This document shows, one piece after another, positions 6,623-32,876 of a DNA stretch of 33,147 bases. A model generated the notes under the pieces. The model saw only the letters and a list, made by a program, of their open reading frames with translations, did no database searches and had not been told where the DNA came from. The translations under genes were made by a program, and so were the position numbers. This stretch comes from Actinomycetes bacterium (lineage in GTDB: Bacteria; Actinomycetota; Acidimicrobiia; Acidimicrobiales; RAAP-2). The DNA is taken from assembly GCA_021791635.1 (NCBI GenBank), contig JAJYWF010000014.1, forward strand, positions 1 to 33,147, written 5' to 3'. How positions within the stretch are numbered: position 1 is the first letter of the stretch; the number at the start of each line of letters is the position of its first letter.

Positions 6623-8560
6623 ATGAAGATCGTCATGGTCAATTGGCGTGACCTAGCCCATCCTCAGGCCGGTGGCTCCGAAGTGCTCGCAGACCGCCTA
6701 CTTCGAGAGCTCACATCACGGGGACACCAGGTCGCGCTGGTCTGTGGTGGGCCTGTCGATGCCCGCCCATATCAAGTCCACGAAGCAGGAGGCACCTTCA
6801 GCCAGTACTTGGGTGTGCCGTTCGTCCATGCCCGCCATTACCGTGACGCAGACGTCGTCATCGACGTGGAGAACGGGCTCCCCTTCTTCTCGCCCTTATG
6901 GCGTCGGGGGCCGTCAATTTGCCTCGTTCACCACGTCCATACTGACCAGTGGAGGTCCCGCTTCCCGGCTCCGATTGCCGCAGGTGCCTCGGCAGTAGAG
7001 CGGCACCTCATGCCGGCGGTCTATCGGCACAACCTCTTCGTTGCCGTCTCACCGTCCACCGCTCGAGCACTCGTGGAGATCGGCGTAAGCCCCGGGCGGA
7101 TCCGTGTCATCGAGAGCGGCGTGGACCTGCCCGAAGGGAAGTTGGCTGAAAAGACATCGGAGCCCCTATTCCTCTCCCTTGGCCGTCTCGTCCCACACAA
7201 GCGTCTTCACCTGCTTCTTGCGGCATGGAAGCACGTCCAGCCGCATGTCGGTGGTCGGTTCGTGATGGTCGGCGACGGTCCTGAGTTCGCTGCGCTACGG
7301 GCCCAGGCCGAGAGTGTCCCAGGTGCCCACGTCATCGGTCGAATAAGCGAAGAAGACAAAGCTCGCCTTTTAGCCCAATCATGGTTCCTGGTGCACGCAG
7401 CGCACCATGAAGGATGGGGAATGTCCATTCTCGAGGCGGCTGCGAGTGGGACGCCCTCCTTGGCTGCAGACGTTCCCGGTGTACGTGACGCCATTGTCAG
7501 GAACCAGACGGGTGTGCTGGTCGACGCGTCGGGGCCACGTCTGGAATTGGACTTGGCCCACGAGTGGATCGCGCTGGCGCGGAACGAATCTCTTCGCGAG
7601 GCGATGGGCACCAGCGCTCGCTCACACGCTGCTCGATACTCGTGGGAGCGCACTGTCTCCACGTGGATCAGGCTCCTCACTGAAGCGGTAGATACTTTCC
7701 ACCATCGGCGACGATCCACCGGAATTCCCCTCGGACCCGTGGAACGGGGTGCGATTGCCACTTCTGGTCACCAGGAGACGCGGTGCCCCGGAAAGGGCCT
7801 CGAAAACTCCACTGGACCCGCACCACGCTCAGGGAACGGGATACGGCGCTCTCTGACTCTGTTCCAGGCGTTCCGACGGCAATTCGAAGATCCAGATCAC
7901 TTCTACACGCTTCTGGGAGACGACACCGCGGAGATCGTTGACCGCTATCACAGGCTTGCCGGCACGAGTGTCTTGGACGTGGGTGGCGGCCCAGGATACT
8001 TTGCCGAGGCCTTCCGTCGGCGTGGGGCGAAGAGCGTCTTCGTGGAGCCGTTCTGGGACGAGATGACCGCACCTGGACGAGCACTCGGCTATGGCGTGAT
8101 CGGCGATGGACTGGCGTTGCCTGTTGGTGACGACACCTTCGATGTGGTGCACTCGTCGAATGTCATCGAGCACGTTGACCGACCCGCGATCCTGTTCCAC
8201 GAGCTCGTACGGGCGGCTAACCCCGGAGGCACCATCTTTCTGGCATTCACCAACTGGCTGTCGCCATTCGGCGGCCATGAAACTTCGCCATGGCACTATT
8301 TGGGGGGCGAACGTGCAGCTCGACGCTACGAGAGGCGGACGGGATATCCTCCCAAGAATCGTTTTGGCGCGAGCTTGTTCCCGCTCAGCATCAAGACCGT
8401 GCTCTCGCTAGCTCGGGATCACGCCGGAGTTGACGTGATCGATGTGTTCCCTCGCTACTACCCCCAGTGGACTCGAAGGGCAGTCGACGTCCCCGGACTG
8501 CGGGAATTCGTGACCTGGAACCTCGCCCTCGTCCTCCGCCGCCAAGAGGAATCGGACTGA
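6623..8560 (+). CDS. GT4 glycosyltransferase fused to a SAM methyltransferase (Rv0225-Rv0224c type)
   Basis: A 645-aa two-enzyme fusion. Residues 1-355 are a GT-B family 4 transferase. Its N-domain has PQAGGSEV (14-21), and its C-domain has GRLVPHKRLHLLL, MVGDGPE and the donor-binding EGWGMSILEA (263-272). A linker of about 45 residues leads to a class I methyltransferase (about 410-640) with motif I LDVGGGPGYF (451-460), the acidic VEP at the end of strand 2, and SSNVIEHV. It also has a distinctive SPFGGHETSPWHYLGG stretch and VFPRYYPQW. From memory, the two halves match M. tuberculosis Rv0225 and Rv0224c, which are separate neighbouring genes near aftD. Here they are fused and lie 25 bp before an AftD homologue. 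I infer that the protein glycosylates a lipid or wall precursor and methylates the same product. Confidence 0.88.
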   Translation: MKIVMVNWRDLAHPQAGGSEVLADRLLRELTSRGHQVALVCGGPVDARPYQVHEAGGTFSQYLGVPFVHARHYRDADVVIDVENGLPFFSPLWRRGPSICLVHHVHTDQWRSRFPAPIAAGASAVERHLMPAVYRHNLFVAVSPSTARALVEIGVSPGRIRVIESGVDLPEGKLAEKTSEPLFLSLGRLVPHKRLHLLLAAWKHVQPHVGGRFVMVGDGPEFAALRAQAESVPGAHVIGRISEEDKARLLAQSWFLVHAAHHEGWGMSILEAAASGTPSLAADVPGVRDAIVRNQTGVLVDASGPRLELDLAHEWIALARNESLREAMGTSARSHAARYSWERTVSTWIRLLTEAVDTFHHRRRSTGIPLGPVERGAIATSGHQETRCPGKGLENSTGPAPRSGNGIRRSLTLFQAFRRQFEDPDHFYTLLGDDTAEIVDRYHRLAGTSVLDVGGGPGYFAEAFRRRGAKSVFVEPFWDEMTAPGRALGYGVIGDGLALPVGDDTFDVVHSSNVIEHVDRPAILFHELVRAANPGGTIFLAFTNWLSPFGGHETSPWHYLGGERAARRYERRTGYPPKNRFGASLFPLSIKTVLSLARDHAGVDVIDVFPRYYPQWTRRAVDVPGLREFVTWNLALVLRRQEESD

Positions 8561-8585: not shown

Positions 8586-11500
8586 ATGGGCACCGGAGTG
8601 ACGACACCGAAAGCTACCGGTGTCGTCTCGACGTCCAATCTGTCGGGAGCTATCGGACCGGGACCCATTGGGGCAGGACCCACCACCCGTCGACAACCCC
8701 AAGTGACGCCGTCGACTGCTCTGGCGAATATTCGGCGCCGCATTCCCGATGTCCTAGTGACCGCAGGCCTGTTGGCCATCGCCTTCGCTCAGGCTGCGGG
8801 CCGGATCGTCGTGGACACCAAGTTCGACCTCACCGTGGACCCCGGCAGATTTCTGGCCGCCGCCACCCGTCTCTGGGATCCTCTGGCGTACTTCGGCTCG
8901 GTGCAGAACCAGGCTTACGGGTACCTCATTCCGATGGGTCCCTTCTACTGGCTTGGTCACGTCCTTGGGGTTCCCGCTTGGATCACTCAGCGTGCATGGC
9001 TCGGACTCCTGTTTGCCATCGCCTACTGGGGAACCATCCTCGTGGCCCAAGAGCTCGGTATCGGTGGACGGTGGACCCAGATGTGCGGCGGCATAGCGTA
9101 CGCATTGTCGCCGATCATGCTCACTGCGGCATTGGCTTCGGCCGGCTTGCTGCCGGTCGTGCTCCTTCCTTGGGTCATGCTGCCCCTCCTCAGGGCATCT
9201 CACGGGAAGACCTCTCTCTCGGGAGCGGCCGCACGCTCCGGCGTCGCCATCCTCCTAATGGGAGGGGTAAACGCCACGTCAGTCTTCGCCGTGCTGCCGC
9301 TGCCGGCGATCTGGTTCCTCACCAGGAGAGCAGGGCCACAACGCAATCGACTGTTCGTCTACTGGGTGGGTGCCACCGTGCTCGCCACCGCGTGGTTTCT
9401 CGTAGCTCTCGTATTCCAGGGGAAGTACGGCTTCAACTTCATCCCGTACACCGAAACGGCGACGGCGACCACGAAGCTTGCCTCAGTCCCCGAAACCCTT
9501 CGAGGTGCAGGTGTATGGCTGTCACTGGTCACCATCAATGGCCAATGGACCCCTGCCGGCTACCTGTTCGAGACCCTTCCGGCCACCATCGTCGGAACCG
9601 CCTCCGTGGCAGCGGCAGGAATTTACGGTCTCACCCGACGCGACATGCCCGAGCGACTGTTCCTCGTGCTGTCGCTTGGACTGGCCTCGTTGGCAATCTG
9701 CGCTGGCTATTGGGGGGATCTCGGGGGGCCGCTGTCCGGGTTTGTCCGGTACCTTCTGACCGGTCCCCTCGCACCGCTCCGCAACGTCTACAAATTTCAG
9801 CCTGTCGTAACCTTTCCGCTGGTTCTGGGGCTCATTCACGCGCTTCACGTGTGGGGGCGGGCGATGGCACGCGCTCTGGGTGCTCTCCGCATGCTCGTGA
9901 TGGTCGGGTTCGTGGCACTGGTTGTGACGGCGTTGGCCCTAGCATCCTTCCCAGCCCTCGATGGCAACCTATACCCGGCCGGCTCGTATGCGGCCTTGCC
10001 GTCGTACTGGACCCAGGCTTCCCATTGGCTGAACGCACGGGGAGCGCTTTCGACCACCGTCGTACTTCCCGGAGCACCGTTCGGGAGATTCGACTGGGGC
10101 ACCACGAACGACCAGCCAATCGAAGCGCTCAGCAACGTCCCATGGGGAGATCGCAACATCGCACCACTGGGATCCATCGGCAACACGCAATTCCTCGACG
10201 CGCTGGACCGCGTCCTGGCGAACGGCCAGCCGGTTCCCGGGCTGGCTGAATATCTCGCGAGCGCTGGGGTCCGATACCTTCTGGTCGAGAACGACATCAA
10301 CTCTTCGGAGACCGGCAGCCCTCCGGCTGTGACGATCCGTACCGCCCTTGCCGGTGATCCAGGCATCTCCCGGGTTGCGCAGTTCGGACCGGTCGTCGTC
10401 AACGATGACTCGGGTCCCTTCGCCGAGGTCGACTTCGCCCCTCTCTCGGAGACCTCGGGACTCAGAGCATTGGAGATCTACCAGGTGGCTACCACCGGAT
10501 CGGGGAACTCCATGGTGACCACCTACCCTGCATCCACGGGTGTCGTGTTGTCTGGAGGACCCCAAGGCGTGTTGCCACTGGCTGCATCCGGTCAACTTGC
10601 GAACCAGGCAGTGGCGTTGGCAGGCGATGTCCTGGCACCGAAGTTCACAGATCCGACCTGGGTCGACACCGATAGCCAGCAGCTCCGTGACACCACATTC
10701 GGCCAGCTCTACGACAACGTTTCGTACGTCCTCCAGCCTAACGAAGCCGCTCCCACAGTCGGTGGAAACCCAAAGGAGTGGACCGTCGTCCCCGGGAACC
10801 GGCACGAGACGGTGAGTGTCCTCCATGGCGCGGCCTCGGTCACCGCGTCCTCCTATGGCACCCCTGTCGACCGGATCCCCGGATACCAGCCGTTGGACGC
10901 GTTCATCAACAATCCCGAAACGGCGAGCTGGGTTGCATCGGGCACGAATCTCCAAGATCCCTGGATCCAGATCACCTTTCACCATCCGGTCCCGATCAGC
11001 CGGATCGAGATCACCCCGCTGCACGACGGGCCGTGGCGGCCGATTGTGGAGCAGGTCGTGGTGTCCACCAGCCAGGGGAAGAGAGCCTCGTCGTTGACGC
11101 CCGACGAAGTCGCTCAATCGGTCCCGGTGGCTTCGGGCGACACCACGTTCCTACGGGTGACCATCGCCCGGCTTGCGAAGGCGCTGGAACCGGCCGCCGA
11201 TGCCGGACCAGGCTTCATCCACATTTCCATTCCCGGAGTAACTGTCTCCCAGAGCTGGAAGCTCCCTGCCGATGGAGCAACCGGGGCCGGTACCATTCCG
11301 TCGTACCTGTTCACATCACCGCTTCCGAACCAGTTCGCCTATCTGTCGGCCCCTGACGAGGAGCCACACATGTCGCGGATTTTCTCAGTGCCCTTCAAGG
11401 CGACTTTCCATGTCGATGCGACCATCACTCCGCTTCCTATACCTCAAATTGTGAAAGAGGCAAATACCACAGGATCTTTGGTGGTGCGTGCCTCCTCGAC

Positions 11501-13220
11501 GTTCGGCAACCTCCCGCTCTACAAGTCGGGGAACCTCATCGACAGCAGCACCCTGACCAGCTGGTGGGCTGGAGCCGGTGACAGCAACCCGCGCCTCACT
11601 TACACTTGGCCGCGCACTCTGACTCTGTCGTCGCTGGACTTCGCTCCCGATCTTGCCGCCAGCCGACCCGAAGTACTCCGCCTCACGACCCCGACGAAGA
11701 GCGAATTGGTGCAACTTCCGGCGACGGCAGGTACGGTGCAGTTCGCTCCGCTCACGACGAATCGGCTGACGGTGACGTTCCCGACTGAGCAGCGGCTCAC
11801 GGGATACAACATCCTCACCAACGGGGATACGGTAATACCCATCGGCATGGCCGAGCTGTCCTTTCCCGCCGTCACCGCCGTCTACCCGCCGGTGGCACAT
11901 CCCTTGAGTCGGCCGTTCACCCTGACGTGCGGTCACGGACCGACGATCGATGTCGACGGTCGGAACTACTCCACTGAAGTGACGGGCACCTACGCGCAGC
12001 TGAATGGCCTCGAACCGATGAGTGTCACCTTGTGCACCCCCCACAGTGACCTCACGTTGGGGCCCGGACTCCATACGTTGACGGTCCACGACTCCAAGCT
12101 GGCCATGAAAGTCACGTCGCTCTCCCTGAGCGGCACCCCCTTGCCCGCCGGTGCCGCGCCTCGTTCGGTCTCCATAGTTCACTGGGGAGCGACCCAGAGG
12201 ACGATCCGTGTCACTCCTGGGTCCCGAGCCATTATCGGCGTACATCAGAACTACAACGTCGGGTGGGTGGCCCGAGCCGGCGGGATCCAACTCAAGCCTG
12301 TCCGCCTCGACGGTTGGCAGCAGGGGTACATCCTCCCAGCCAGCACTTCTCCACAGACTGTCACACTCACGTTCGCACCGGAGAACCCCTTCCGCTATGC
12401 CCTTCTGGCGGGTGCGGCTTTAGCCTTCCTTCTCGTCGTGTGGGCCTGCATTCCCAACCGCCGACGCCGTCCCCGCATTCGTTCCGATGCGAGAAGTGAA
12501 TTACGCCCTAAGGCGAAGCACCGACCTCCCGTCCACGCTGCCTCCAGCAACCAAGTCCATCTCCGTGACTCCGGCGAGTCGGTGCCTCATCCGGCTGAAG
12601 GGAGCGGGCCGCGGGGAGCGTCGGAGGCTCGGGGCAGTGAACAGGGGCGGGCCCGCGGTCAGGCTCCGATCTCCTCCGTGCTCATGTCGCGCCACGGCTA
12701 TACGTCCCGACCCGTGGTCTCCACCCTGGTCCTCACCGCGGCGATGTTCCTTCTCATCGGACCAGCAGCCGTGATCGTCCCACTCCTCGTGGTCGTTCCC
12801 AGGATCGATCGTCCCTCCCGCCAACGATTCAAGGTCGTCGGAACCGATCTCAGCCTGGTAATCTCGGCAACCCGAAGGGCGATATCACTGCCGTGGCTGG
12901 CGTTCGCGGCCACGGTAGCTGCAGGCGTCGTGATTGCCATTCGACCAGGTCTCACATCGAATGCATTCTTCGGTCCGCTGAGCTTCACGGCACAGATTCT
13001 CGGCGGGGTGGCATTGGGGGCTCTCGTCGTCTCTCTGATCCCGGGTCTTGCCCGATGGGAGAGCAGCGGTGGCGACAGCGGACCGCCGGCCTGGCACCCA
13101 CCCCCACTGCCACTTGCGCCACCCCCGGGAGCGCCACCGCCACATCCGTCGCCATCACTGTCGACGTCTCCCGGTCCTCCGGCAGCGCCTGGCGTCTCGG
13201 CGACCGGCCGACATACCTGA
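8586..13220 (+). CDS. aftD-like: AftD-like alpha-(1->3)-arabinofuranosyltransferase (DUF3367 family)
   Basis: A 1544-aa membrane GT-C enzyme of the AftD family, which in mycobacteria adds arabinofuranose from decaprenyl-phospho-arabinose to arabinogalactan and lipoarabinomannan outside the membrane. Hallmarks: VDTKFDLTVDPGRFL (about 77-91, holding the candidate catalytic Asp), VQNQAYGYLIPMGPFYWLGH and ITQRAWLGL. About eleven hydrophobic helices follow to about residue 455. The long extracytoplasmic part carries two F5/8-type-C-like carbohydrate-binding modules (about 751-855 with NPETASWVASG; about 965-1068 with LTSWWAGAG). A C-terminal helix (about 1276-1296) is followed by a charged linker and three further helices. 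The Pro-rich tail has no counterpart I recall in AftD. The stop lies in the first unit of a 17-bp tandem repeat. The family is clear; the sugar used in this organism is not. Confidence 0.88.
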   Translation: MGTGVTTPKATGVVSTSNLSGAIGPGPIGAGPTTRRQPQVTPSTALANIRRRIPDVLVTAGLLAIAFAQAAGRIVVDTKFDLTVDPGRFLAAATRLWDPLAYFGSVQNQAYGYLIPMGPFYWLGHVLGVPAWITQRAWLGLLFAIAYWGTILVAQELGIGGRWTQMCGGIAYALSPIMLTAALASAGLLPVVLLPWVMLPLLRASHGKTSLSGAAARSGVAILLMGGVNATSVFAVLPLPAIWFLTRRAGPQRNRLFVYWVGATVLATAWFLVALVFQGKYGFNFIPYTETATATTKLASVPETLRGAGVWLSLVTINGQWTPAGYLFETLPATIVGTASVAAAGIYGLTRRDMPERLFLVLSLGLASLAICAGYWGDLGGPLSGFVRYLLTGPLAPLRNVYKFQPVVTFPLVLGLIHALHVWGRAMARALGALRMLVMVGFVALVVTALALASFPALDGNLYPAGSYAALPSYWTQASHWLNARGALSTTVVLPGAPFGRFDWGTTNDQPIEALSNVPWGDRNIAPLGSIGNTQFLDALDRVLANGQPVPGLAEYLASAGVRYLLVENDINSSETGSPPAVTIRTALAGDPGISRVAQFGPVVVNDDSGPFAEVDFAPLSETSGLRALEIYQVATTGSGNSMVTTYPASTGVVLSGGPQGVLPLAASGQLANQAVALAGDVLAPKFTDPTWVDTDSQQLRDTTFGQLYDNVSYVLQPNEAAPTVGGNPKEWTVVPGNRHETVSVLHGAASVTASSYGTPVDRIPGYQPLDAFINNPETASWVASGTNLQDPWIQITFHHPVPISRIEITPLHDGPWRPIVEQVVVSTSQGKRASSLTPDEVAQSVPVASGDTTFLRVTIARLAKALEPAADAGPGFIHISIPGVTVSQSWKLPADGATGAGTIPSYLFTSPLPNQFAYLSAPDEEPHMSRIFSVPFKATFHVDATITPLPIPQIVKEANTTGSLVVRASSTFGNLPLYKSGNLIDSSTLTSWWAGAGDSNPRLTYTWPRTLTLSSLDFAPDLAASRPEVLRLTTPTKSELVQLPATAGTVQFAPLTTNRLTVTFPTEQRLTGYNILTNGDTVIPIGMAELSFPAVTAVYPPVAHPLSRPFTLTCGHGPTIDVDGRNYSTEVTGTYAQLNGLEPMSVTLCTPHSDLTLGPGLHTLTVHDSKLAMKVTSLSLSGTPLPAGAAPRSVSIVHWGATQRTIRVTPGSRAIIGVHQNYNVGWVARAGGIQLKPVRLDGWQQGYILPASTSPQTVTLTFAPENPFRYALLAGAALAFLLVVWACIPNRRRRPRIRSDARSELRPKAKHRPPVHAASSNQVHLRDSGESVPHPAEGSGPRGASEARGSEQGRARGQAPISSVLMSRHGYTSRPVVSTLVLTAAMFLLIGPAAVIVPLLVVVPRIDRPSRQRFKVVGTDLSLVISATRRAISLPWLAFAATVAAGVVIAIRPGLTSNAFFGPLSFTAQILGGVALGALVVSLIPGLARWESSGGDSGPPAWHPPPLPLAPPPGAPPPHPSPSLSTSPGPPAAPGVSATGRHT

Positions 13221-17191: not shown

Positions 17192-18289
17192 TCACCGCTT
17201 CAGCACCTCGGCCAGCGCACCGAGACAGGTGAGGACGTTGACCCTTCGAGACGAGTGCCCCATGCACCCGATCCGCCACACCCGTCCTGAGAGCTTCCCG
17301 GCACCTCCACCGATCTCGAGGTCGAAGCGGTCCAGGAGTGCTCGTCGAACGCCGGCCTCGTCCATTCCGTCGGGCAATGTCTCCGGCACGCGCACCGTCG
17401 TCAGCTGCGCCAGCCGATGGGAACGGGTGGCGAACAGCTCCAATCCCATGGCCTCCAATCCGTCTTGGAGCAGCTTCCCGCACCTGTAGTGACGGTCCCA
17501 ACCCTCTTCAAGTCCTTCCCCCAGGATCACCCCCAGTCCGGCGTTGAGGGCGCCGATCATGGTCACCGGGGCCGTGTGGTGGTACACCCGTCCGGCGCCA
17601 GAGTCGACGTAACGGGCCAGGAGGTTGAGGTCCAAGTACCAGCTCGTGGGGCGCTCCACCAGACGGGACCGGGCTCGATCCGAGACGGTGAGAGGCGCCA
17701 GGCCGGGGGGAACACCGAGGCACTTCTGCGTACCGCTGTAGGCCACGTCCATGCCCCACGCGTCCACGAGGACCTCCATTCCCCCGAGGGACGTCACGGT
17801 GTCGACCACCAAGAGCGCATCTCCCTTGACCTTCCCGACCGCGGCGACGTCGTTCCACACCCCGGTGGACGTCTCGGCATGAACCAGGGCGATAATTCGA
17901 GGGGCAGGGTGCGCTGACACCAGGGCCGAAGGATCCAGGGGCTCGCCCCAGGGAGCGTCGACCCGCACGACGTCGGCACCGACCCTGGCCGCCACGTCAC
18001 ACATGCGCTCGCCGAACAACCCGTTGACCCCCACTACCACCGGGTCTCCTGGCCGGACGAAGTTCACGAACACCGCTTCCATGCCGGCGGAGCCGGTCCC
18101 GCTCAGCGGAAGCGTGAGGGCGTTCTCGGTCTGGAACACTTTCCGGAGCCGTCGACAGGTCTCGTCGAGGACGTCGAGGAACCTGGGGTCGAGATGGCCC
18201 AGTACCGGAAACGTCAGGGCCGCCGTCACTTCTGGATACGGGTTCGACGGTCCAGGGCCCATCAAGAGGCGTTCGGCAACAGGGGTCAC
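17192..18289 (-). CDS. Class V PLP aminotransferase (serine/alanine-glyoxylate type)
   Basis: A fold-type I PLP enzyme of the alanine-glyoxylate / serine-pyruvate aminotransferase group, 365 aa from GTG 18289. Evidence: LMGPGPSNPYPEV at the N-terminus (phosphate and substrate entry), SGTGSAGMEAVF, HAETSTGV (138-144), VVDTVTSLGG with the pyridine-binding Asp163, and the Schiff-base Lys189 in YSGTQKCLG. The late HHTAPVTMIGALN and RIGCMGHSS are conserved in the group. The role would be glyoxylate detoxification or serine-glycine metabolism. The frame stays open upstream to 18688, but that part lies under the opposite-strand glycosyltransferase, has low complexity, and adds nothing typical of the family. 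A CACGAT -10-like box 6 nt before GTG 18289 supports a leaderless start. Confidence 0.88.
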   Translation of the reverse strand: MTPVAERLLMGPGPSNPYPEVTAALTFPVLGHLDPRFLDVLDETCRRLRKVFQTENALTLPLSGTGSAGMEAVFVNFVRPGDPVVVGVNGLFGERMCDVAARVGADVVRVDAPWGEPLDPSALVSAHPAPRIIALVHAETSTGVWNDVAAVGKVKGDALLVVDTVTSLGGMEVLVDAWGMDVAYSGTQKCLGVPPGLAPLTVSDRARSRLVERPTSWYLDLNLLARYVDSGAGRVYHHTAPVTMIGALNAGLGVILGEGLEEGWDRHYRCGKLLQDGLEAMGLELFATRSHRLAQLTTVRVPETLPDGMDEAGVRRALLDRFDLEIGGGAGKLSGRVWRIGCMGHSSRRVNVLTCLGALAEVLKR

Positions 18290-18340
18290 CCGCGCATCGT
18301 GGCAGGTCTGCGGGCCGGCGCGCCAGCAGGAAGCACCCAC
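18290..18340. promoter_or_regulatory. 51-bp divergent promoter region
   Basis: This gap separates the leftward aminotransferase (GTG 18289) from the rightward glycosyltransferase (GTG 18341). On the minus strand CACGAT (18301-18296) sits 6 nt from the start codon. On the plus strand AGGAAG (18328-18333) is 7 nt before GTG and acts as the ribosome binding site. The plus-strand promoter must lie at or inside the aminotransferase gene; I cannot pick it out. Confidence 0.35.
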
Positions 18341-20272
18341 GTGCCCAAGAGCGTGCACAGCTTGGACTACATTCCCAGCGTGGAACGGGTCCTCTTCGCC
18401 GCCCGCGACCTCCCTCAGCTGCGTCCGGACGTGAGCCAGGACCTGGATCGGTACAGGAAGTGGGCGACCACTCGCCAGGCTGAGCGCCAGGCTGGACACC
18501 AGGCCAAGCGCCCGACCAAGCGCCAGGCCGAGACCACGACCGGGGCCCGATCCGATATCCGCCTCCCCGAAGGCACCCCGACACTCACCTTGGACGTGGT
18601 GGTGGTGGTCGCCGACCCTGACCCAGCCTGGCTGGATCGGGGCCTCGGCTCCATCGCCAGCCAGACCGTCGGCGCTTGGGCTCTCCATCTGGCGGTCATC
18701 GGTCCACTCGACGCCACCACCGAGGCGGTCATCGGCAGGTACCTCCGCCAGATCCCCGGGGGCCTCCTACTCCACTTCGCACGAGAGACCCCGACCGCCG
18801 AAGCGGTACGGGCATCAGTGGCCGGCGGCTCGGCCGGTGCCTGGATCTCCCTGGACGGGCACGACCAGCTCGCCCCCGACGCCGTGGAGCTGCTGCTCGG
18901 GGCCCTGGGCTTCGTATCCGATCCCGTTGGAGATCGGGCTCTCCGTGCTGACGCTGCCTACGGCGACGAGGACCGTGTGGACGACGCCGGCCAACTACGT
19001 GACCCGGTGCTGAAACCAGGTTGGTCGCCCGAGCTCCTCTTGTCGCTTCCGTACGTGGGGCGGCCCGTGGTTTGGAGGAGGGCGTCGGTGGACGAGGCCG
19101 GCGGCATCCGTCCGGTCCCTGACGGGGACTGGGAGCACGACCTCATGCTGCGCGTCGCCGAGCTGGGCGGCCGGTATGCCCATGTGCCCGAAGTCCTTTG
19201 CCACCGCCCGGCCGACGGGCCCAGCGTCTGGGATCCGGTCCCGAACCCGGAACGTACGACGACCCCTCTCACGGCGACCCCTCTCACGGCGACACCGACG
19301 GGTGCGGCACCAGGCGCCCAGGCGGTCACCGACGCACTTCGGCGCCGGGGCGAGACCGGCTGCGTGACGAAGGGGCCCTTGGCCGGATCGTGGTGGATAC
19401 GGCGCCGCTCCCACCGGTACTCGGCCAGCATCATCATCCCCTTCCGTGACGGTGCCCGGTTCCTCAGGACGTGCACCGAGTCCGTCTTCGCCACCACCGG
19501 TGACGAGAGGACCCAGATCGTCCTCGTGGACAACGGTTCGGTCGAGCCCGAGACCCAGAGCCTCCTCGACCGGCTCGGGACGCGGCCCGACGTCACCATC
19601 CTCCATGACGACCGGCCCTTCAACTGGTCGGAGCTCAACAACATGGCCGTCGACCACGTCCAAAGTGACGTCCTGGTCTTCATGAACAACGACGTAGAAG
19701 CACTACATAGGGGATGGCTTGAACAGATGGCTTCCCACGTCCAGCGCGCCCACGTCGGCGCGGTGGGCGCACGGCTTCTCTACCCTAATGGACGCGTGCA
19801 GCACGCCGGGGTGGTGCTGGGGATGGGAGGCGCCGCCGGCCACGTCCTCGCCGGTCTGAGTAGGACACTTCCCGGATATCTGGGAATGGCCGTTCTCGCC
19901 CGGGACTGCACGGCGGTGACCGGAGCATGCCTGGTCACCGGTCATTCCGTGTTCGACACATTGAACGGGTTCGACGCGAGCTTCGGGACGGACTTGAACG
20001 ACATCGACTACTGCCTCAGGGCGGCTCGGTCCGGAAAGCTGACGATCTACGAGCCCCTTGTCGAGATGATCCACTACGAGTCACCCACCCGGGGCACTTC
20101 GGCGAACACCGACGAGATTGCTGCGTTCATCGACCGATGGTATGAGGCGATATCGGCCGGCGACGATCACCTAAATTGCCACCTCTCCCGGATAGACTCG
20201 GCCTGCGCGCTACGCACATTGGACGAATCCGAATGGTGGTCGAATTGGCGCCTGAGCCTCGGGAGATCGTGA
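18341..20272 (+). CDS. Two-domain family 2 glycosyltransferase, first domain degenerate
   Basis: A 643-aa protein resembling the two-domain GT2 enzymes of rhamnan and O-antigen loci. An N-terminal basic linker (RQAERQAGHQAKRPTKRQAE, about residues 46-65) precedes domain A (about 84-300). Domain A keeps the DEDxxD stretch (YGDEDRVDDAG) and a KPGWSPELLLS motif. It has lost the usual VDDGS nucleotide-binding motif (it reads LAVIGPLD), and the DHDD motif is altered to DGHD. A Pro/Thr linker holding a 15-bp duplication follows. Domain B (about 359-620) is canonical: SIIIPFRDG, VLVDNGS, NWSELNN, FMNNDVE and NDIDYCLRA. Domain B is probably the active transferase, with an unknown sugar. The start GTG 18341 has AGGAAG at 7-nt spacing. 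The next gene overlaps its stop. Confidence 0.87.
   Translation: MPKSVHSLDYIPSVERVLFAARDLPQLRPDVSQDLDRYRKWATTRQAERQAGHQAKRPTKRQAETTTGARSDIRLPEGTPTLTLDVVVVVADPDPAWLDRGLGSIASQTVGAWALHLAVIGPLDATTEAVIGRYLRQIPGGLLLHFARETPTAEAVRASVAGGSAGAWISLDGHDQLAPDAVELLLGALGFVSDPVGDRALRADAAYGDEDRVDDAGQLRDPVLKPGWSPELLLSLPYVGRPVVWRRASVDEAGGIRPVPDGDWEHDLMLRVAELGGRYAHVPEVLCHRPADGPSVWDPVPNPERTTTPLTATPLTATPTGAAPGAQAVTDALRRRGETGCVTKGPLAGSWWIRRRSHRYSASIIIPFRDGARFLRTCTESVFATTGDERTQIVLVDNGSVEPETQSLLDRLGTRPDVTILHDDRPFNWSELNNMAVDHVQSDVLVFMNNDVEALHRGWLEQMASHVQRAHVGAVGARLLYPNGRVQHAGVVLGMGGAAGHVLAGLSRTLPGYLGMAVLARDCTAVTGACLVTGHSVFDTLNGFDASFGTDLNDIDYCLRAARSGKLTIYEPLVEMIHYESPTRGTSANTDEIAAFIDRWYEAISAGDDHLNCHLSRIDSACALRTLDESEWWSNWRLSLGRS
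19261..19290 (+). repeat. Perfect 15-bp tandem duplication in a GT linker
   Basis: GACCCCTCTCACGGC is present twice in tandem (19261-19275, 19276-19290), in frame, giving TPLTA twice in the linker between the two GT2 domains. It is a slippage product that keeps the frame. Confidence 0.9.
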
Positions 20273-26855: not shown

Positions 26856-27824
26856 ATGAACGATCCCAATGTAGGCATCTCCGACACCCGTGGGTCCCCC
26901 GGGCGCGCGCTGCCCGAGCAGCCTTCACTGCGCGTGCAGACCGTGCTGTTCAACCACGACGCCAGAGACGTCACACGTTTCGTGCACAGCATCTGCGCCG
27001 CCGGCACCGTGGCCCGGAGGCGCGGCGCGCTGGGGCGGATGGTACTGGCACTGGGAGATTCCTCGCCCGCACCTCTCCTCGACCGTGCAATGGAGAACGA
27101 GCATCGACGCGTCATCACTGCATCGGGCTTCGACAGCTACGAATACTTGTCCTTCGGCGAAAACTTGGGCTCAGCTGGCGGGCACAACGTCTTCCTCGGT
27201 CGCCAGGACATGGATCTCACCCTCGTGATCAATCCCGACGCGTATGCCAGTCCTGAGCTGATCGTCGAGCTGGTCTCGGGAATTCGAGATCGAGATGTCG
27301 GCATCGTCGAAGCCCGACAGGCGCCAATGGAGCACCCAAAGGAATTCGACCGCACGACCGGAGATACTGCATGGGCCTCGGGTGCATGCTTCCTCGTGCG
27401 ACGTGAGGTGCTCTGTGAAATTGACGGCTTCGACTCGCACACGTTCTTTCTCTACTGCGACGACGTGGACTTCAGCTGGCGTGCGCGCCTGGCCGGTTTT
27501 CGCGTCGTCTACCACCCCCCCGCCGTGGTGTACCACGACAAGCGGCTCGACCGGGATGGACAGATGATTCCTGCGGCGTCCGAGGTGTACTTCTCGGCCG
27601 AGGCCTCATTGATGATGGCCTGGAAGTACTCGCGTCCCGACCTGGCCGATCAGTGGAGCCGTGCCCTGCTGGCGACCACTCATGCGACACATCAGCGGGC
27701 CGTTTTTGAATTCCGTCGGAGGATGGACGAGCACACGCTCCCGACGCCGCTCGACCCTGAGGGGACGGTGGCCGACTTCGTCGGTGACACTTACGGACCC
27801 CACCGCTTCAAGTATGACGACTGA
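26856..27824 (+). CDS. WbbL-like family 2 glycosyltransferase (rhamnosyltransferase group)
   Basis: A 322-aa cytoplasmic GT2 enzyme. Motifs: VQTVLFNHDARDVTRF at the N-terminus, ENLGSAGGHNVFL (the NxGxxxGxN of rhamnosyltransferases), LVINPDAYASPELI (NPD in place of DxD, normal for the group), SGACFLVRREVL, IDGFDSHTFFLYCDDVDFSWRARLAGF and VVYHDKR. These match the WbbL/RfbF group, which transfers rhamnose or related sugars onto a lipid-linked saccharide. The length is normal. ATG 26856 has no Shine-Dalgarno sequence. The next gene starts inside its last codons (ATG 27814), so the two are translationally coupled. The sugar specificity is not readable. Confidence 0.9.
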   Translation: MNDPNVGISDTRGSPGRALPEQPSLRVQTVLFNHDARDVTRFVHSICAAGTVARRRGALGRMVLALGDSSPAPLLDRAMENEHRRVITASGFDSYEYLSFGENLGSAGGHNVFLGRQDMDLTLVINPDAYASPELIVELVSGIRDRDVGIVEARQAPMEHPKEFDRTTGDTAWASGACFLVRREVLCEIDGFDSHTFFLYCDDVDFSWRARLAGFRVVYHPPAVVYHDKRLDRDGQMIPAASEVYFSAEASLMMAWKYSRPDLADQWSRALLATTHATHQRAVFEFRRRMDEHTLPTPLDPEGTVADFVGDTYGPHRFKYDD

Positions 27825-28836
27825 GCCTCGACAGACGCAGTTCGGTGCCGGGTTCGACCAGATGGGTGAACATCCGCTCACCGTGCTCGTCCGTCCCGAT
27901 ACAAGTGGAGCCGTCGGCCTCCACGACACCCTTCTCTCTCTCGCTGCTCAAATTACACAGGAGTTCGACGTTGCGATATTGGCCGCCGGCTGGTCTGACG
28001 ACCACGTCCGTCAGCTCGAAGGGATCGTCGCCGGCTTCGACAGGTCCTTTGCCGGCCGAGTGCGCGTGGTGACCGACAGGGATGGTTCGATGGCCAACGC
28101 ACTCGTGTCCATCGGCCGAGCTCGATCGGTCTCGCATCGGTGGGCGACGAGCCCGTACGTGACTGTCGTGACATCGCCCGACGTTGCCTTCGCCCACTGG
28201 ACCTCTTCGATCTCTTCCACGATCGAGAGGCGACCGGGTGTCCTCATCCATTCCGTCGTCGCCTCACAGCCTTTCGAGGTGGCGAGGCATGGGGAGCACC
28301 TGACGTACACCAGTGTTGGCCGGCCACGTGTCCCGTGGCCCACCCAATTCGACCTCGTCGCCTTCATCTCCAATGGACCTGGTACTGAGCCTTGCTCCGC
28401 CTTCGCCATTCCTGTTGACACGCTCAGCACGTTGCCCGAGAAGATCGAGGGGCCATCGTCGCTACCCGACGACGAGCGCCTCTGGCGGATCGTGTCCACC
28501 ATTGCCCTACGGGGTGAGGTCGTCGACGTGAGCGAGGTGCTCCAGCTCCGCCGCCACAGCCAGGAAGGTTCCGGTCACGACTACGCCCTTAGCCCTTCGC
28601 CCATCTCTGGATCAGCTGCGGTATCCAGTTACCTCCGTGAGCTCGACGGACGGGGACTGCTGGGACCAGGGAGCAGCCTCCACACCCTTCTTGTCGACGG
28701 GGAGCGGGGCGAGGAGGCCGAGTGTGGACGAGCAACTGCTACCTCGACAACAGCATCCCAAGGATCGACGAAGCACTGGGGCATCCGGTCGCTGGCCGGC
28801 TTCATGGCATGGTGTAGACGGACGTTTCGGCCATGA
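27814..28836 (+). CDS. GT2-like protein lacking the DxD motif
   Basis: A 340-aa protein with a GT-A-like start (HPLTVLVRPDTSGAVGLHDT, then QITQEFDVAILAAGWSDD), where the predicted first strand and helix fit GT2. The motif positions are altered. The nucleotide-binding VDDGS position reads AAGWSDD, and the metal site reads YVTVVTSPDVAFAHW, where an active enzyme would have DDDD-like acids. No closing acceptor motif is visible. I infer a catalytically dead GT2 relative, perhaps a partner of the GT2 upstream or of the giant protein downstream. It overlaps the upstream gene by 11 nt and the downstream gene by 4 nt (ATGA), so stoichiometric expression with both is likely. Confidence 0.65.
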   Translation: MTTEPRQTQFGAGFDQMGEHPLTVLVRPDTSGAVGLHDTLLSLAAQITQEFDVAILAAGWSDDHVRQLEGIVAGFDRSFAGRVRVVTDRDGSMANALVSIGRARSVSHRWATSPYVTVVTSPDVAFAHWTSSISSTIERRPGVLIHSVVASQPFEVARHGEHLTYTSVGRPRVPWPTQFDLVAFISNGPGTEPCSAFAIPVDTLSTLPEKIEGPSSLPDDERLWRIVSTIALRGEVVDVSEVLQLRRHSQEGSGHDYALSPSPISGSAAVSSYLRELDGRGLLGPGSSLHTLLVDGERGEEAECGRATATSTTASQGSTKHWGIRSLAGFMAWCRRTFRP

Positions 28837-31800
28837 CGCACGATCTCCAGGTTCTCTGGATGGGAAGGCGTCCCGGTTCGGAGACACCCCTCGTGCCGGT
28901 CCACGGCGCTACCGCCGGTGGAGATGTCGCCGTCCACTGCTTCCTTCTCGGTGAAGGAGGTGCCGTGGTCACCAACGTGGCGGCCACAGGGGGGGAGCTG
29001 TGGACAGAGCAGGATTTCGTGGTTCGAGGAGGCGTAGCCCAGTTCCTCGTCGAATTCATCGCTTCGCGACGCGTCGACGTGCTCCATCTCCACTCCGGAA
29101 GAGCTTCGGCGGACCTTCTGCCGGCGATCTGCCGTGCCTTTCCCGACCTGGAAATTGTGGCGTCGGCTCGCTTCGATGGAGGGAGGCTTGACCCTTTCAC
29201 CGAGTACCTCCACCTTCGCTACGCCGGCCTAATCTCCGGGTATCTGGTCGGGACACGATCCGTCACCGACGCATTGGTTCGCCGGGGGGTTCCCGAAGAC
29301 GTGATCCGGCACATCCCCGACGATGGCGATCACGAGCGAAAAGAGCTCATCACCAGCTTCTACCGGTCGATCACCACTCGGCGATCTCATAGGGACACTT
29401 CGGTGTCGCCCACTTCGTCTGCGGCGGCCCGAGAAGATCTGGACCTGCCCTCGACGGCGGATGCAGCGCGGCCCCGGCGCGGTGGCGCCCGACTGAGTGA
29501 GACCAGAATGACCCGCCGGGTCACGTCGGCTACGTCAGCACGAGTGAGTGTCGTCATGCCGTTCTTCGACCACGCGGCATTCGTGGAAGAAGCCATCGGC
29601 TCGATCCGATCTCAGACGCGCCCAGTCGACGAGATCATCGTGGTCGACGACGGTTCGCGCCGCCAGCGGAGCGACGAGGTGCTGACGTCCCTTGTTGATT
29701 CCGGGGTCAGCGTGATCCGCCAGGAGCACCGAGGCCCGAGCGCGGCACGAAACACTGGCGCGGCGGCGTCGAGCGGCGAGGCCATCTTCTTCCTCGACAG
29801 CGACGACATGATGCCCTCCACTCAGATCGGGACTGCTCTCGAGACGCTGGCCGCCGCACCGGCAGATGTGGGCTTCGTCTACCCCGACTTCGAGATCTTC
29901 GGGGATCAGGAGCGGATTGTGGAGATGCCTCCGTACAATCTGTACCTGCTCATGCTTCGCAATTTCTGCGGCATGGGCTGCCTGGTCGACCGGGGGGTCT
30001 TTGACATCGGCTGCAAATTCAGCGAGGACCTGGTGGGAGTCCACGAAGACTGGGACTTCTTCCTCACGCTGGGTGCCGCAGGGATCCATGGCGTGCCCAA
30101 CCACGCTGCGAGGCTTCGCTACCGCCACCATGCGACCTCTCGACGAAAGCTCATCCAAGAGGCAGAGGGTGACGGACGGAAAAGTGTCGCCTCGGTCCAC
30201 CCAGAGCTGTTCGGCGACGCATCAATGATCGAAGTGAAGCGGAGCTGGGCGCCGGCACTGAGCATCGTCACCAGCTCACCGGAGCTAGTCGACGCCGAAG
30301 GGCAGTCGTGCGCGGACTTCGAAGTGCTCTTCGCTCCGGGCGTCGGTGCGATGCCCCAGGCACGAGGGAGATGGATCGTCGTCGTCGGGCCCGCCGGCAT
30401 GGACGGCTTCTCGGACCCTGGATTCGTCGAGCGGCTCATCCGCCTGGCCCTGTGCAATCCCGACATGTCCGCTTTCGGGCTCGCGCACTTGGAGCCAGGG
30501 AACTTGGAGCCAGGGAACTTGGAGCCAGGGAGCATTGGGCGAGCGGACTTGGAGCCAGCGGACATCCCGATCGATCGACGATCGGGCTGGCACCGCAATG
30601 CGTCAGAACCCGGGCATGCCGCCGCGGTGGTGATCAATGGAGCGGCGTACGCTCACTGGCGGCTCAGCGCCCGTCTTGGACCAGACGGTCTCGACCCCGT
30701 CCTCGAAGACCTGGTGCGGACCCAAGGCATCACCGACTGGTGGAGGCTGGCTCCAGGCCCGATCCCTCCTGTCGTACCGGCACCCCACCGCATAGGGACG
30801 TTCGCCGGTACTGAAGCATCGCTCCTCGATCCCGGCCTGCCACCCGACAACGACTCACAGAACTCCGAGGCTCATTTCCGCTGGAGCGAACCGGCGCCCG
30901 TCTTCCTCCCGAAGGACGGCCTGCGACGCATCCCAATACCTCCACGCGGCTACCGCGATGGCGCCCATGCCATCGCTGAAGGCGCGTGGGCCCACTGGAA
31001 GCCGGAGAGTACGGTCCGCCTCGATCTGGTCCGCCGCCTGGATGGATGCGCCCGCTTGGAAGCTGTCGACGACGTCTCCGGTCCACAAGTGCCCAACGAG
31101 AACGAGCTGCGCGTGTCACTGGGTCGCGTCTGGACCGAGCCGCTACGGGGTACGGCTTGCCTGGCAGCCGGCACCGACCAGCTGACCAACGCTCCTGTGT
31201 ACCGGGTGACGAACGACCCCACGCTGTCGGCGGGAGAGCTCCCAGTCGCCTACGTGTTCGACTCTCCCGTGGACGATGCCGTCGAACTGGCTGGGGCCTT
31301 CGAACGCGCCTATCGCTCGCTGGCCTCACAAATCCCTTCCACCACCGCCCCAGTGCTCAGGATCGAGACTGGGAAGGCACTTATCGACGGTGACTGCTCC
31401 GTCCCCGCCCATCGGGCCACTTCGACCGCCACCGGTCGCTTCGGTGCTCAGCTCACCGAATCCCGGACATGGCTCCCCTTGTACGAGATCGCCCTCGACG
31501 GCCACCGCTTCCGCTATTCGGCCGAGCCCGACGACTGCATGCTGAGCACTGGCTCGATCAGGCGGACGGCGATGACGGTGGCCCAGATCGCAACACCCTG
31601 GCGCGCGGCGCCTGCAGCCGGTCTCTTCGAAGCGGCTTCAAGCGACGGGGGAGGAACGTGGTACGTGAGCCGGTCAGAGTTGCTCCGTTCCGGTGAGCAA
31701 TTGGTCGAGTCCCGACTGATCGGAGGTATCGCTCACCTTCCCGGACTGACCTCCCCGCTCGTGCGACTGATTCCCGGCTCGCCGGCGTTGACGCCGGTGG

Positions 31801-32876
31801 GCGAGCCGGGCCACCGCTTAGCGGTCGACTGGAGATCCCTCGTGCACCGTGGCTACCAGGTGGAAGGCACTATCGGTCACGCCCGAGTTCCCGACCCGGA
31901 GCTGGCCCCGCTGTACCGGTGGTCGGAGGTCGCGACCGGGCGCACTCGGCTGACGCTGGGCGACTGTCCCTCCGGCACCGGGCAGTCATGGAGGCTCGAT
32001 GGCACGCTCGGGATGGCCTGGCGGCCGGGGTGCGCGCGGACGGGCCTTGCCGACCTGTGGGAGATGGCTCGCGGGGAAGAAGTGGCCTACACCGTCCAAC
32101 CCGAGCTCTTCGAGGCGAACGGCTACCAAACCCAACGGATCGTGGCAAGCGTCAGCTTCGAGATGTCGCCGGACTTGCTACCGCTGATCTGGGCCGAGGC
32201 TCCTCGAGCCGAACACAGCTTCGCGACTGTCTCCGATCGGGAAGCCACTCTCGCTGGCTACGAGGAGCGACGCGTCATCGGCTACATCCGACCACTTTCG
32301 CTTCCCTTGGGATCCACCACCCATGTACTGACATCGGTGCCGGAGTCATGGGTCTGTCTCCCGGGTCCCGACGGTCTCCCGGCGTCGGGCGCCTGGGTGG
32401 CGTGCTTCCCGTTCCCCGATTGTGTGCCGATGCGAACGCTGACAGCTGATCCAACTGCTCTCGAGGTCGGAGGAAGCGAGGAGGACGAGCCGACGACCTC
32501 GTTCGTCGGCTATGCATCGAGCCGGCTCGTCCCGTACGCACGACCGGTGTTCGAGGTGGAGACTGATGACGGCCATGAGCGCTGGCTCAGCCTCACGCTC
32601 CCGCCTGGGGCCCGCGTCACCGGGGTGCGTTGCTACGCGTTCGGACGGCCAAGCGACCACCTTGTCGCCCACCACGGCGATAGAGCCACGGATGAACCGG
32701 CTGTTCACGGAACTACGGTTCCTTTTTCCTCGGTGGGCGGCACTTCCACCTTGGGAGAAGCCGACCGCACCCAGCCGAGGGGTGGAAGTGGGCCTGACGG
32801 ATCCACGTCGACGTCACTACGTGATCGGCTGCGGGCTGCCAGTTGGCGCATCCGCCGCCAGCGACAGCAGCCATGA
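28833..32876 (+). CDS. 1347-aa mosaic glycosyltransferase with C-terminal repeats
   Basis: A very large cytoplasmic protein with no signal peptide or membrane helix. Residues 1-185 resemble the N-terminal Rossmann half of a GT-B enzyme (VDVLHLHSGRASADLLPAIC, GYLVGTRSVTDALVRRGV) without the donor-binding half. Residues 238-445 are a canonical GT2 domain: VSVVMPFFDHAAFVEEAI, IIVVDDGS, GPSAARNTGA, FFLDSDDMM (about 317-325) and VHEDWDFFLTLG. Residues 470-700 look like a degenerate second GT domain holding a pentapeptide-like tract (551-580). From about 880 to 1240, six or seven repeats of about 40-50 residues share PLYRW...GYQxEG-like features (PLYRW, GYQVEG, GYQTQR, GYEERR), reminiscent of DUF5648-type lectin-like repeats. 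The end is basic. I infer GT2 activity with repeats that bind the growing glycan. Confidence 0.7.
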   Translation: MTHDLQVLWMGRRPGSETPLVPVHGATAGGDVAVHCFLLGEGGAVVTNVAATGGELWTEQDFVVRGGVAQFLVEFIASRRVDVLHLHSGRASADLLPAICRAFPDLEIVASARFDGGRLDPFTEYLHLRYAGLISGYLVGTRSVTDALVRRGVPEDVIRHIPDDGDHERKELITSFYRSITTRRSHRDTSVSPTSSAAAREDLDLPSTADAARPRRGGARLSETRMTRRVTSATSARVSVVMPFFDHAAFVEEAIGSIRSQTRPVDEIIVVDDGSRRQRSDEVLTSLVDSGVSVIRQEHRGPSAARNTGAAASSGEAIFFLDSDDMMPSTQIGTALETLAAAPADVGFVYPDFEIFGDQERIVEMPPYNLYLLMLRNFCGMGCLVDRGVFDIGCKFSEDLVGVHEDWDFFLTLGAAGIHGVPNHAARLRYRHHATSRRKLIQEAEGDGRKSVASVHPELFGDASMIEVKRSWAPALSIVTSSPELVDAEGQSCADFEVLFAPGVGAMPQARGRWIVVVGPAGMDGFSDPGFVERLIRLALCNPDMSAFGLAHLEPGNLEPGNLEPGSIGRADLEPADIPIDRRSGWHRNASEPGHAAAVVINGAAYAHWRLSARLGPDGLDPVLEDLVRTQGITDWWRLAPGPIPPVVPAPHRIGTFAGTEASLLDPGLPPDNDSQNSEAHFRWSEPAPVFLPKDGLRRIPIPPRGYRDGAHAIAEGAWAHWKPESTVRLDLVRRLDGCARLEAVDDVSGPQVPNENELRVSLGRVWTEPLRGTACLAAGTDQLTNAPVYRVTNDPTLSAGELPVAYVFDSPVDDAVELAGAFERAYRSLASQIPSTTAPVLRIETGKALIDGDCSVPAHRATSTATGRFGAQLTESRTWLPLYEIALDGHRFRYSAEPDDCMLSTGSIRRTAMTVAQIATPWRAAPAAGLFEAASSDGGGTWYVSRSELLRSGEQLVESRLIGGIAHLPGLTSPLVRLIPGSPALTPVGEPGHRLAVDWRSLVHRGYQVEGTIGHARVPDPELAPLYRWSEVATGRTRLTLGDCPSGTGQSWRLDGTLGMAWRPGCARTGLADLWEMARGEEVAYTVQPELFEANGYQTQRIVASVSFEMSPDLLPLIWAEAPRAEHSFATVSDREATLAGYEERRVIGYIRPLSLPLGSTTHVLTSVPESWVCLPGPDGLPASGAWVACFPFPDCVPMRTLTADPTALEVGGSEEDEPTTSFVGYASSRLVPYARPVFEVETDDGHERWLSLTLPPGARVTGVRCYAFGRPSDHLVAHHGDRATDEPAVHGTTVPFSSVGGTSTLGEADRTQPRGGSGPDGSTSTSLRDRLRAASWRIRRQRQQP
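30483..30572 (+). repeat. Pentapeptide-like tract from 15-bp tandem repeats
   Basis: The 15-bp unit TTGGAGCCAGGGAAC is repeated twice exactly (30489-30503, 30504-30518) and once with one change (30519-30533), then once more diverged from 30549. In frame it gives six pentapeptides A/G-[H/N/S/D]-[L/I]-x-x: AHLEP, GNLEP, GNLEP, GSIGR, ADLEP, ADIPI. This fits the A(D/N)LxX pentapeptide consensus. Confidence 0.8.

What the first reader, a model, noticed from the sequence alone, without database searches (positions are those of the whole stretch)
28833..32876. Giant mosaic glycosyltransferase: half GT-B, full GT2, degenerate GT, pentapeptide tract and repeat domain in one chain
Seen: one 4-kb frame with a GT-B N-terminal-like half, a complete GT2 motif set, a second GT-like region without acids, six pentapeptide-like units, and six or seven C-terminal repeats built on PLYRW/GYxxEG-like features. 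Family knowledge: GT2 domains often carry accessory domains, but I do not know this combination. Inference: the repeats hold the glycan product or surface polymer while GT2 extends it, making the protein a self-contained assembly unit with its two coupled neighbours.
Basis: partly seen in the sequence, partly recalled or inferred. Interest (0 to 1): 0.65.

Follow-up and report, generated by a model that had tools for sequence, protein, structure and literature searches.

The report
Sugar transferase with glycan-holding tail
This large soil-bacterium protein is a sugar-adding enzyme for the cell surface with a long tail of small propeller-like blades that probably grips the sugar chain; its odd front piece is half of an older enzyme, still whole in distant relatives, so the protein is an unusual variant of a known kind and not a new machine.

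Summary
The 1347-aa frame and its intact GT2 domain are real. The "mosaic" is a decayed, rearranged member of one rare family. Thermoleophilia MAGs, and one genome of the window's own class, carry complete GT4, GT2, degenerate GT2 and C-terminal repeats in one protein of 1065-1248 aa. In four closer relatives (Acidimicrobiaceae MAGs) the second half of the GT4 is gone; the remaining half is a separate small gene just upstream of a GT2 + degenerate GT2 + repeats gene. The window frame joins these two genes through a non-conserved, poorly coding-like 45-codon linker, so the "giant" may be two genes read as one. The pentapeptide tract is a 15-bp tandem expansion found in no compared relative. The C-terminal repeats are modelled as about ten beta-beta-(alpha)-beta blades, the topology reported for DUF5648, a suspected glycan binder; sequence support is weak (under cut-off). 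One relative lacks most blades. Best explanation: a cytoplasmic, probably membrane-associated GT2 that extends or decorates a surface polysaccharide, with blades tethering the chain. The "self-contained assembly unit" idea is not supported. New variant of a known kind; interest moderate.

The parts
28833..29372 (+). residues 1-180: N-terminal half of a GT-B/GT4 fold, donor-binding C-half missing; separate gene in four relatives
   Evidence: Glyco_transf_4 E 0.0018 for this piece (under cut-off); BLASTP E 6e-11 to the GT4 N-half of Conexibacter P0011; Rossmann-like order of strands and helices, pLDDT about 80 from residue 68
29373..29507 (+). residues 181-225: non-conserved linker where the two genes of the relatives are joined
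   Evidence: no counterpart in relatives, pLDDT under 50 over 185-222, inverted codon-position GC
29508..30227 (+). residues 226-465: catalytic GT2 (GT-A) domain; M226 aligns with the start of the separate GT2 gene in relatives
   Evidence: PF00535 E 2.4e-25; PDB fold matches Z about 20-23 to heparosan synthase 2, K4CP, RmlT, TarP
29793..29807 (+). LDSDD motif (residues 321-325), metal/nucleotide-sugar site; both Asp of the DxD invariant
   Evidence: alignment of eight homologues
30042..30062 (+). HEDWDFF motif (residues 404-410), ED motif expected at the catalytic base position
   Evidence: HEDWDF invariant in eight homologues; catalytic role is family knowledge
30237..30752 (+). residues 469-640: degenerate second GT2-like domain, no DxD
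   Evidence: in-register profile alignment with the GT2 core (hhalign E 0.0019, probability only 14%); model pLDDT 80-90 outside the inserted tract
30483..30565 (+). 15-bp in-frame tandem repeat coding LEPGN-like units, an insertion private to the window among those compared
   Evidence: Tandem Repeats Finder score 100; absent in the seven aligned homologues
31011..31259 (+). residues 727-809: two first blades (no helix)
   Evidence: predicted strands
31470..32291 (+). residues 880-1153: six blades, five of them beta-beta-alpha-beta, DUF5648-like
   Evidence: model m0235485ae9b2, pLDDT mostly 65-89; blades at residues 1023-1159 match 9uj0_A with Z 10.3 over 127 residues, rmsd 4.1; DUF5648 E 0.0023 in bog_473, 0.24 in the window piece
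32322..32642 (+). residues 1164-1270: last, poorly predicted blades
   Evidence: strands predicted, pLDDT 31-65
32643..32873 (+). residues 1271-1347: disordered-looking tail ending in a basic stretch; in three relatives a strongly basic amphipathic end
   Evidence: hydrophobic-moment percentile 0.999 in three relatives, 0.91 in the window
26856..27824 (+). upstream neighbour: GT2-type transferase (322 aa), recurs with this gene
   Evidence: PF13641 E 1.5e-9; 50-55% identical in four relatives
27820..28836 (+). upstream neighbour: a further GT2-like protein without a conserved DxD, overlaps this gene by 4 bases
   Evidence: no Pfam match; homologues found in four relatives by BLAST, three of them aligned, the DxD position not conserved

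Best explanation
The core (residues 226-1270) is a GT2 glycosyltransferase of a surface-polysaccharide locus. It is most likely cytoplasmic and membrane-associated. Its GT-A domain transfers one sugar from a nucleotide sugar to a lipid-linked or growing polysaccharide. The C-terminal chain of beta-beta-alpha-beta blades (DUF5648-like mini-propellers) holds the polymer and raises acceptor selection or processivity, in the way some teichoic-acid and O-antigen enzymes use accessory domains. The degenerate GT2 is a non-catalytic spacer or acceptor platform. The N-terminal half GT-B is the remnant of an ancestral GT4 domain that lost its donor half; it persists as a separate small protein in relatives and is fused, or only read as fused, here. 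Shown: domains, gene order, absence of the GT4 C-half, split genes, varying blade number. Inferred: location, polymer binding, processivity, role of the remnants, direction of the loss.
For: GT2 motifs invariant in eight homologues and GT-A fold matches to polymer-acting enzymes (K4CP, heparosan synthase 2, RmlT, TarP). Complete GT4 + GT2 + degenerate GT2 + repeats in one gene in Conexibacter and Solirubrobacteraceae MAGs, partly seen on an incomplete Pseudonocardiales contig, and in a genome of the window's class. Split genes in four relatives. Blade pattern, 9uj0 match Z 10.3, sub-threshold DUF5648 match, and the reported (beta3-alpha)3 fold and glycan link of DUF5648 (PMC11299179, PMC12853789). 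Locus full of glycan genes, incl. an AftD-type protein, PF11847 E 1e-196. No transmembrane stretch: highest 19-residue hydropathy mean 1.43.
Against: DUF5648 matches are under the curated cut-off; Foldseek against PDB and viral models gave no match under E 0.001, and it was not verified that the 9uj0 domain belongs to DUF5648 (searches found no sequence link). palsa_740 keeps the transferase with almost no blades, so blades are not needed in every lineage. No substrate, product or binding data. The basic amphipathic tail is weak in the window.
Confidence: 0.55

Rival explanations
1. The 1347-aa 'giant' is not one protein: two adjacent genes (half GT-B; GT2 + repeats) are joined in the reading only, because of a lost stop or a one-base sequence error, and translation of the second part starts at M226 (29508). 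This rival concerns the fusion; the core enzyme is as in the best explanation.
For: Two separate genes in all four relatives, overlapping by 4 bases or 9-18 bases apart (coordinates); M226 aligns with their start; linker not coding-like, unconserved and disordered; in another frame a TAG lies just after the end of the conserved N-part (sequence).
Against: The frame is open without a break, and 45 codons are too few for a firm composition test; no reads to check the assembly; no clear ribosome-binding site seen by eye before 29508.
Confidence: 0.4
2. One reading: a self-contained assembly unit in which GT-B half, GT2 and repeats together build and hold a polymer with two coupled neighbours.
For: Neighbours recur with the gene; repeats are possibly glycan-binding.
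Against: A half GT-B has no donor-binding half (family knowledge); it is a separate gene elsewhere; many other transferases lie in the locus; repeats are nearly absent in palsa_740.
Confidence: 0.08
3. The repeats are oligomerisation or scaffold blades for the transferase complex and do not bind glycan.
For: Low sequence likeness between blades; blade number varies between relatives; multi-enzyme complexes are described for O-antigen polymerases (PMC11231755).
Against: DUF5648-type folds are reported in glycan-directed proteins (PMC12853789, PMC11299179).
Confidence: 0.25

Closest known systems
GT2 enzymes acting on wall teichoic acid: RmlT (8bz4-8bz8), TarP (6h1j), TarS (5tze)
   Same: GT-A catalytic domain, fold Z about 20-21 to the window's GT2; they act on a polymer, and RmlT and TarS carry further C-terminal domains (from general knowledge)
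   Different: no GT4 half, no degenerate GT2, no DUF5648-like blades known; different polymer
Dual-domain polymerases K4CP (2z86) and heparosan synthase 2 (8vh7)
   Same: two GT-type domains in one chain; among the best fold matches for the catalytic domain
   Different: both domains active there (general knowledge); the second GT2-like domain here has no DxD in any homologue
DUF5648 (PF18885), (beta3-alpha)3 domain of GH70 enzymes and of BSAP C-terminal domains
   Same: beta1-beta2-alpha-beta3 blades of about 45 residues (against PMC11299179); sub-threshold Pfam match
   Different: about ten blades and not three; weak sequence match; attached to a transferase and not to a secreted protein
Conexibacter RYN_242 P0011 and Solirubrobacteraceae Chersky.18_22 P0012 (unnamed family)
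   Same: GT2 + degenerate GT2 + repeats in one gene
   Different: they keep the complete GT4 domain at the N-terminus; fewer blades (by eye)

Membership tests
GT2 / Pfam PF00535 | profile match over the curated cut-off | tested here: met
   89.8 bits against 23.3
GT2 / Pfam PF00535 | DxD and downstream acidic ED motif | tested here: met
   LDSDD 321-325 and HEDWDFF 404-410; DxD and HEDWDF invariant in eight
GT2 / Pfam PF00535 | glycosyl transfer from a nucleotide sugar | not testable with these tools
   needs biochemistry
GT4 (GT-B) | N-terminal Rossmann half | tested here: met
   homology to the N-half of a full GT4; Pfam PF13439 itself under cut-off
GT4 (GT-B) | C-terminal donor-binding half (Glycos_transf_1) | tested here: not met
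   absent in window and four relatives, present in L046-L048
DUF5648 PF18885 | profile match over the curated cut-off | tested here: not met
   12.1 bits (window piece) and 18.6 bits (bog_473) against 25
DUF5648 PF18885 | blades of beta1-beta2-alpha-beta3, three per domain | tested here: inconclusive
   five blades show the order, others lack the helix; closure into threes not tested; 9uj0 match spans three blades
Pentapeptide repeat domain | A(D/N)LXX repeats forming a beta-helix | tested here: not met
   only a short 15-bp tandem array, no Pfam hit, pLDDT under 50 at residues 555-584
Mycofactocin glycosyltransferase MftF (TIGR03965) | score over the NCBIfam cut-off | tested here: not met
   60.8 bits against 280

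The most novel reading that the evidence does not exclude
The acceptor half of a GT-B enzyme, having lost its donor half, is kept as a small protein that works with the neighbouring GT2 + degenerate GT2 + blade protein: two dead transferase folds and a blade chain presenting a polymer to one live active site.
Probability: 0.25. Interest if true: 0.55.

Novelty: new variant of a known kind. Interest (0 to 1): 0.36.

Why it matters
It gives a readable series of domain loss in a polysaccharide enzyme: complete GT4 + GT2 + degenerate GT2 + blades, then half GT4 as its own gene, then a possible re-fusion. It also puts a suspected glycan-binding fold (DUF5648 type), reported in secreted enzymes and toxins, onto a transferase of the biosynthetic machinery, in soil and permafrost actinobacteria whose envelopes are hardly studied.

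Tried and rejected
Single-sequence scan of genome contigs found no relatives; the alignment query did. DUF5648 search of the own genome: none. One weak 51-residue hit in G097 lies in a different, unrelated-looking frame and was dropped. Blade-to-blade profile comparisons: mostly not significant (best B4/B5 E 7.9e-5). Foldseek of the blades against viral models and PDB: nothing under E 0.001. Sequence link between true DUF5648 repeats and PDB, to verify the 9uj0 domain: none. Profile of the degenerate GT2 against PDB: nothing meaningful. Profile of the half GT-B against PDB: nothing. Profile of the blades against PDB: nothing. Phylum-wide counts failed three times for machine reasons. Pentapeptide-repeat domain, and 'complete second transferase', rejected for lack of match or acids.

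Full report
The frame. Window 28833-32876 (+) encodes 1347 residues. The window is contig C24 of a 2.46-Mb genome whose relatives with this gene are Acidimicrobiaceae MAGs: palsa_457, palsa_650, palsa_740, bog_473 (equal contig lengths identify G001, G041, G042, G024 with L042, L043, L045, L044). The gene is rare: 172 genomes of the window's family gave five with a convincing match to the C-terminal part, the own one included, plus one weak hit that was dropped.

The catalytic part. PF00535 matches residues 239-346 with 89.8 bits. In eight homologues the two aspartates of the DxD and the HEDWDF motif are invariant. AlphaFold2 gives this domain pLDDT mostly about 90, and it matches GT-A enzymes that act on polymers: heparosan synthase 2 Z 22.9 (rmsd 3.2, 215 aligned), K4CP Z 21.0 (3.2, 225), RmlT Z 21.0 (2.8, 219), TarP Z 20.8 (3.5, 220); differences under 1 in Z are ties. 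It is an ordinary, active-looking GT2.

The GT-B half. The N-terminal part aligns with residues 80-204 of a Conexibacter protein (BLASTP E 6e-11). That protein, and one from Solirubrobacteraceae, has both halves of GT4 (PF13439 and PF00534 over their cut-offs), then GT2, then the degenerate region and repeats. A 1065-aa relative with the same order exists in the window's class. In the four Acidimicrobiaceae relatives the half GT-B is a separate gene, at most about 257-320 aa as read, directly upstream of a gene for the rest. So the half is what is left of a complete GT4; which form is ancestral is inferred from the presence of the complete form in another class, without a tree.

Is the window protein a fusion? 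M226 aligns with the start of the separate genes. The linker 181-225 has no counterpart, is disordered in the model, and its codon-position GC is inverted. A stop in another frame lies right after the conserved N-part (sequence). I give 0.4 to the reading that these are two genes joined only on paper.

The degenerate GT2. Residues about 470-600 align in register with the GT2 core (hhalign E 0.0019 but probability 14%); longer Thermoleophilia versions keep more of the spacing of a GT2 without the DxD. The upstream neighbour (27820-28836) is a further GT2-like protein without a conserved DxD; that it is GT2-like is judged by eye.

The LEPGN tract. 30483-30565 is a 15-bp tandem array, present only in the window among the sequences compared. 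It is best read as a slippage expansion.

The blades. The model of residues 676-1270 (five-sequence alignment, mean pLDDT 65.6, pTM 0.57) shows strands and helices in the order beta-beta-alpha-beta at residues 880-920, 930-965, 974-1018, 1072-1108 and 1116-1153, the same without the helix at 1024-1063, and helix-less blades before and after. [quoted passage not shown] Pfam's DUF5648 scores 18.6 bits (E 0.0023) in bog_473 and 12.1 bits (E 0.24) in the window piece, both under the cut-off of 25. VIA-align finds 9uj0_A, residues 351-488, Z 10.3 over 127 residues (rmsd 4.1) for three successive blades, next row Z 3.1; I could not verify the family of that domain, and the tool warns that repeats can score to about 13 by arrangement alone. 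I therefore write 'DUF5648-like', not 'DUF5648'. palsa_740 lacks nearly all blades and the class relative L092 has about three (by eye), so the blade number varies.

Setting. The window holds an AftD-type GT-C (PF11847 E 1e-196), a GT4-methyltransferase protein, tandem GT2 proteins, an acyltransferase, an epimerase and an aminotransferase. Aminotransferase, both tandem GT2 proteins, a 390-aa protein, the two upstream neighbours and this gene recur together in relatives (not every gene lies in every stretch read, and orientation differs). This is a surface-polysaccharide locus by content.

Mechanism and verdict. Best reading: a cytoplasmic GT2 that extends or decorates a surface polymer and holds it with its blades (0.55). 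The assembly-unit idea is not supported. No paper in the library holds DUF5648, Acidimicrobiia and glycosyltransferase together, which says little about the wider literature. New variant of a known kind.

Noticed in passing
window 8586-13220 (+): 1544-aa protein with the AftD arabinofuranosyltransferase GT-C domain (PF11847 E 1.1e-196) and a weak F5/8 type C match, outside the mycobacteria where AftD is best known.
   Followed up: no
window 6623-8560 (+): One frame joins a complete GT4 transferase with a methyltransferase.
   Followed up: no
window 27820-28836 (+): GT2-like neighbour whose DxD position differs between relatives (TSPD, DDNV, RPLD, YPDD), as if losing catalysis.
   Followed up: partly
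window 18194-18688: The aminotransferase frame (- strand) and a tandem-GT2 frame (+ strand) overlap by about 500 bases; at least one start is placed too far upstream.
   Followed up: no
L039 1934-4123 (-) and L040 8878-11028 (+): In two relatives a protein resembling WbsX joined to a TylF-like methyltransferase lies close to the blade gene (recognised by eye, no family search).
   Followed up: no
L094, L095: Genuine DUF5648 repeats in the window's class occur at the end of secreted-looking repeat proteins with Thr-rich linkers.
   Followed up: partly
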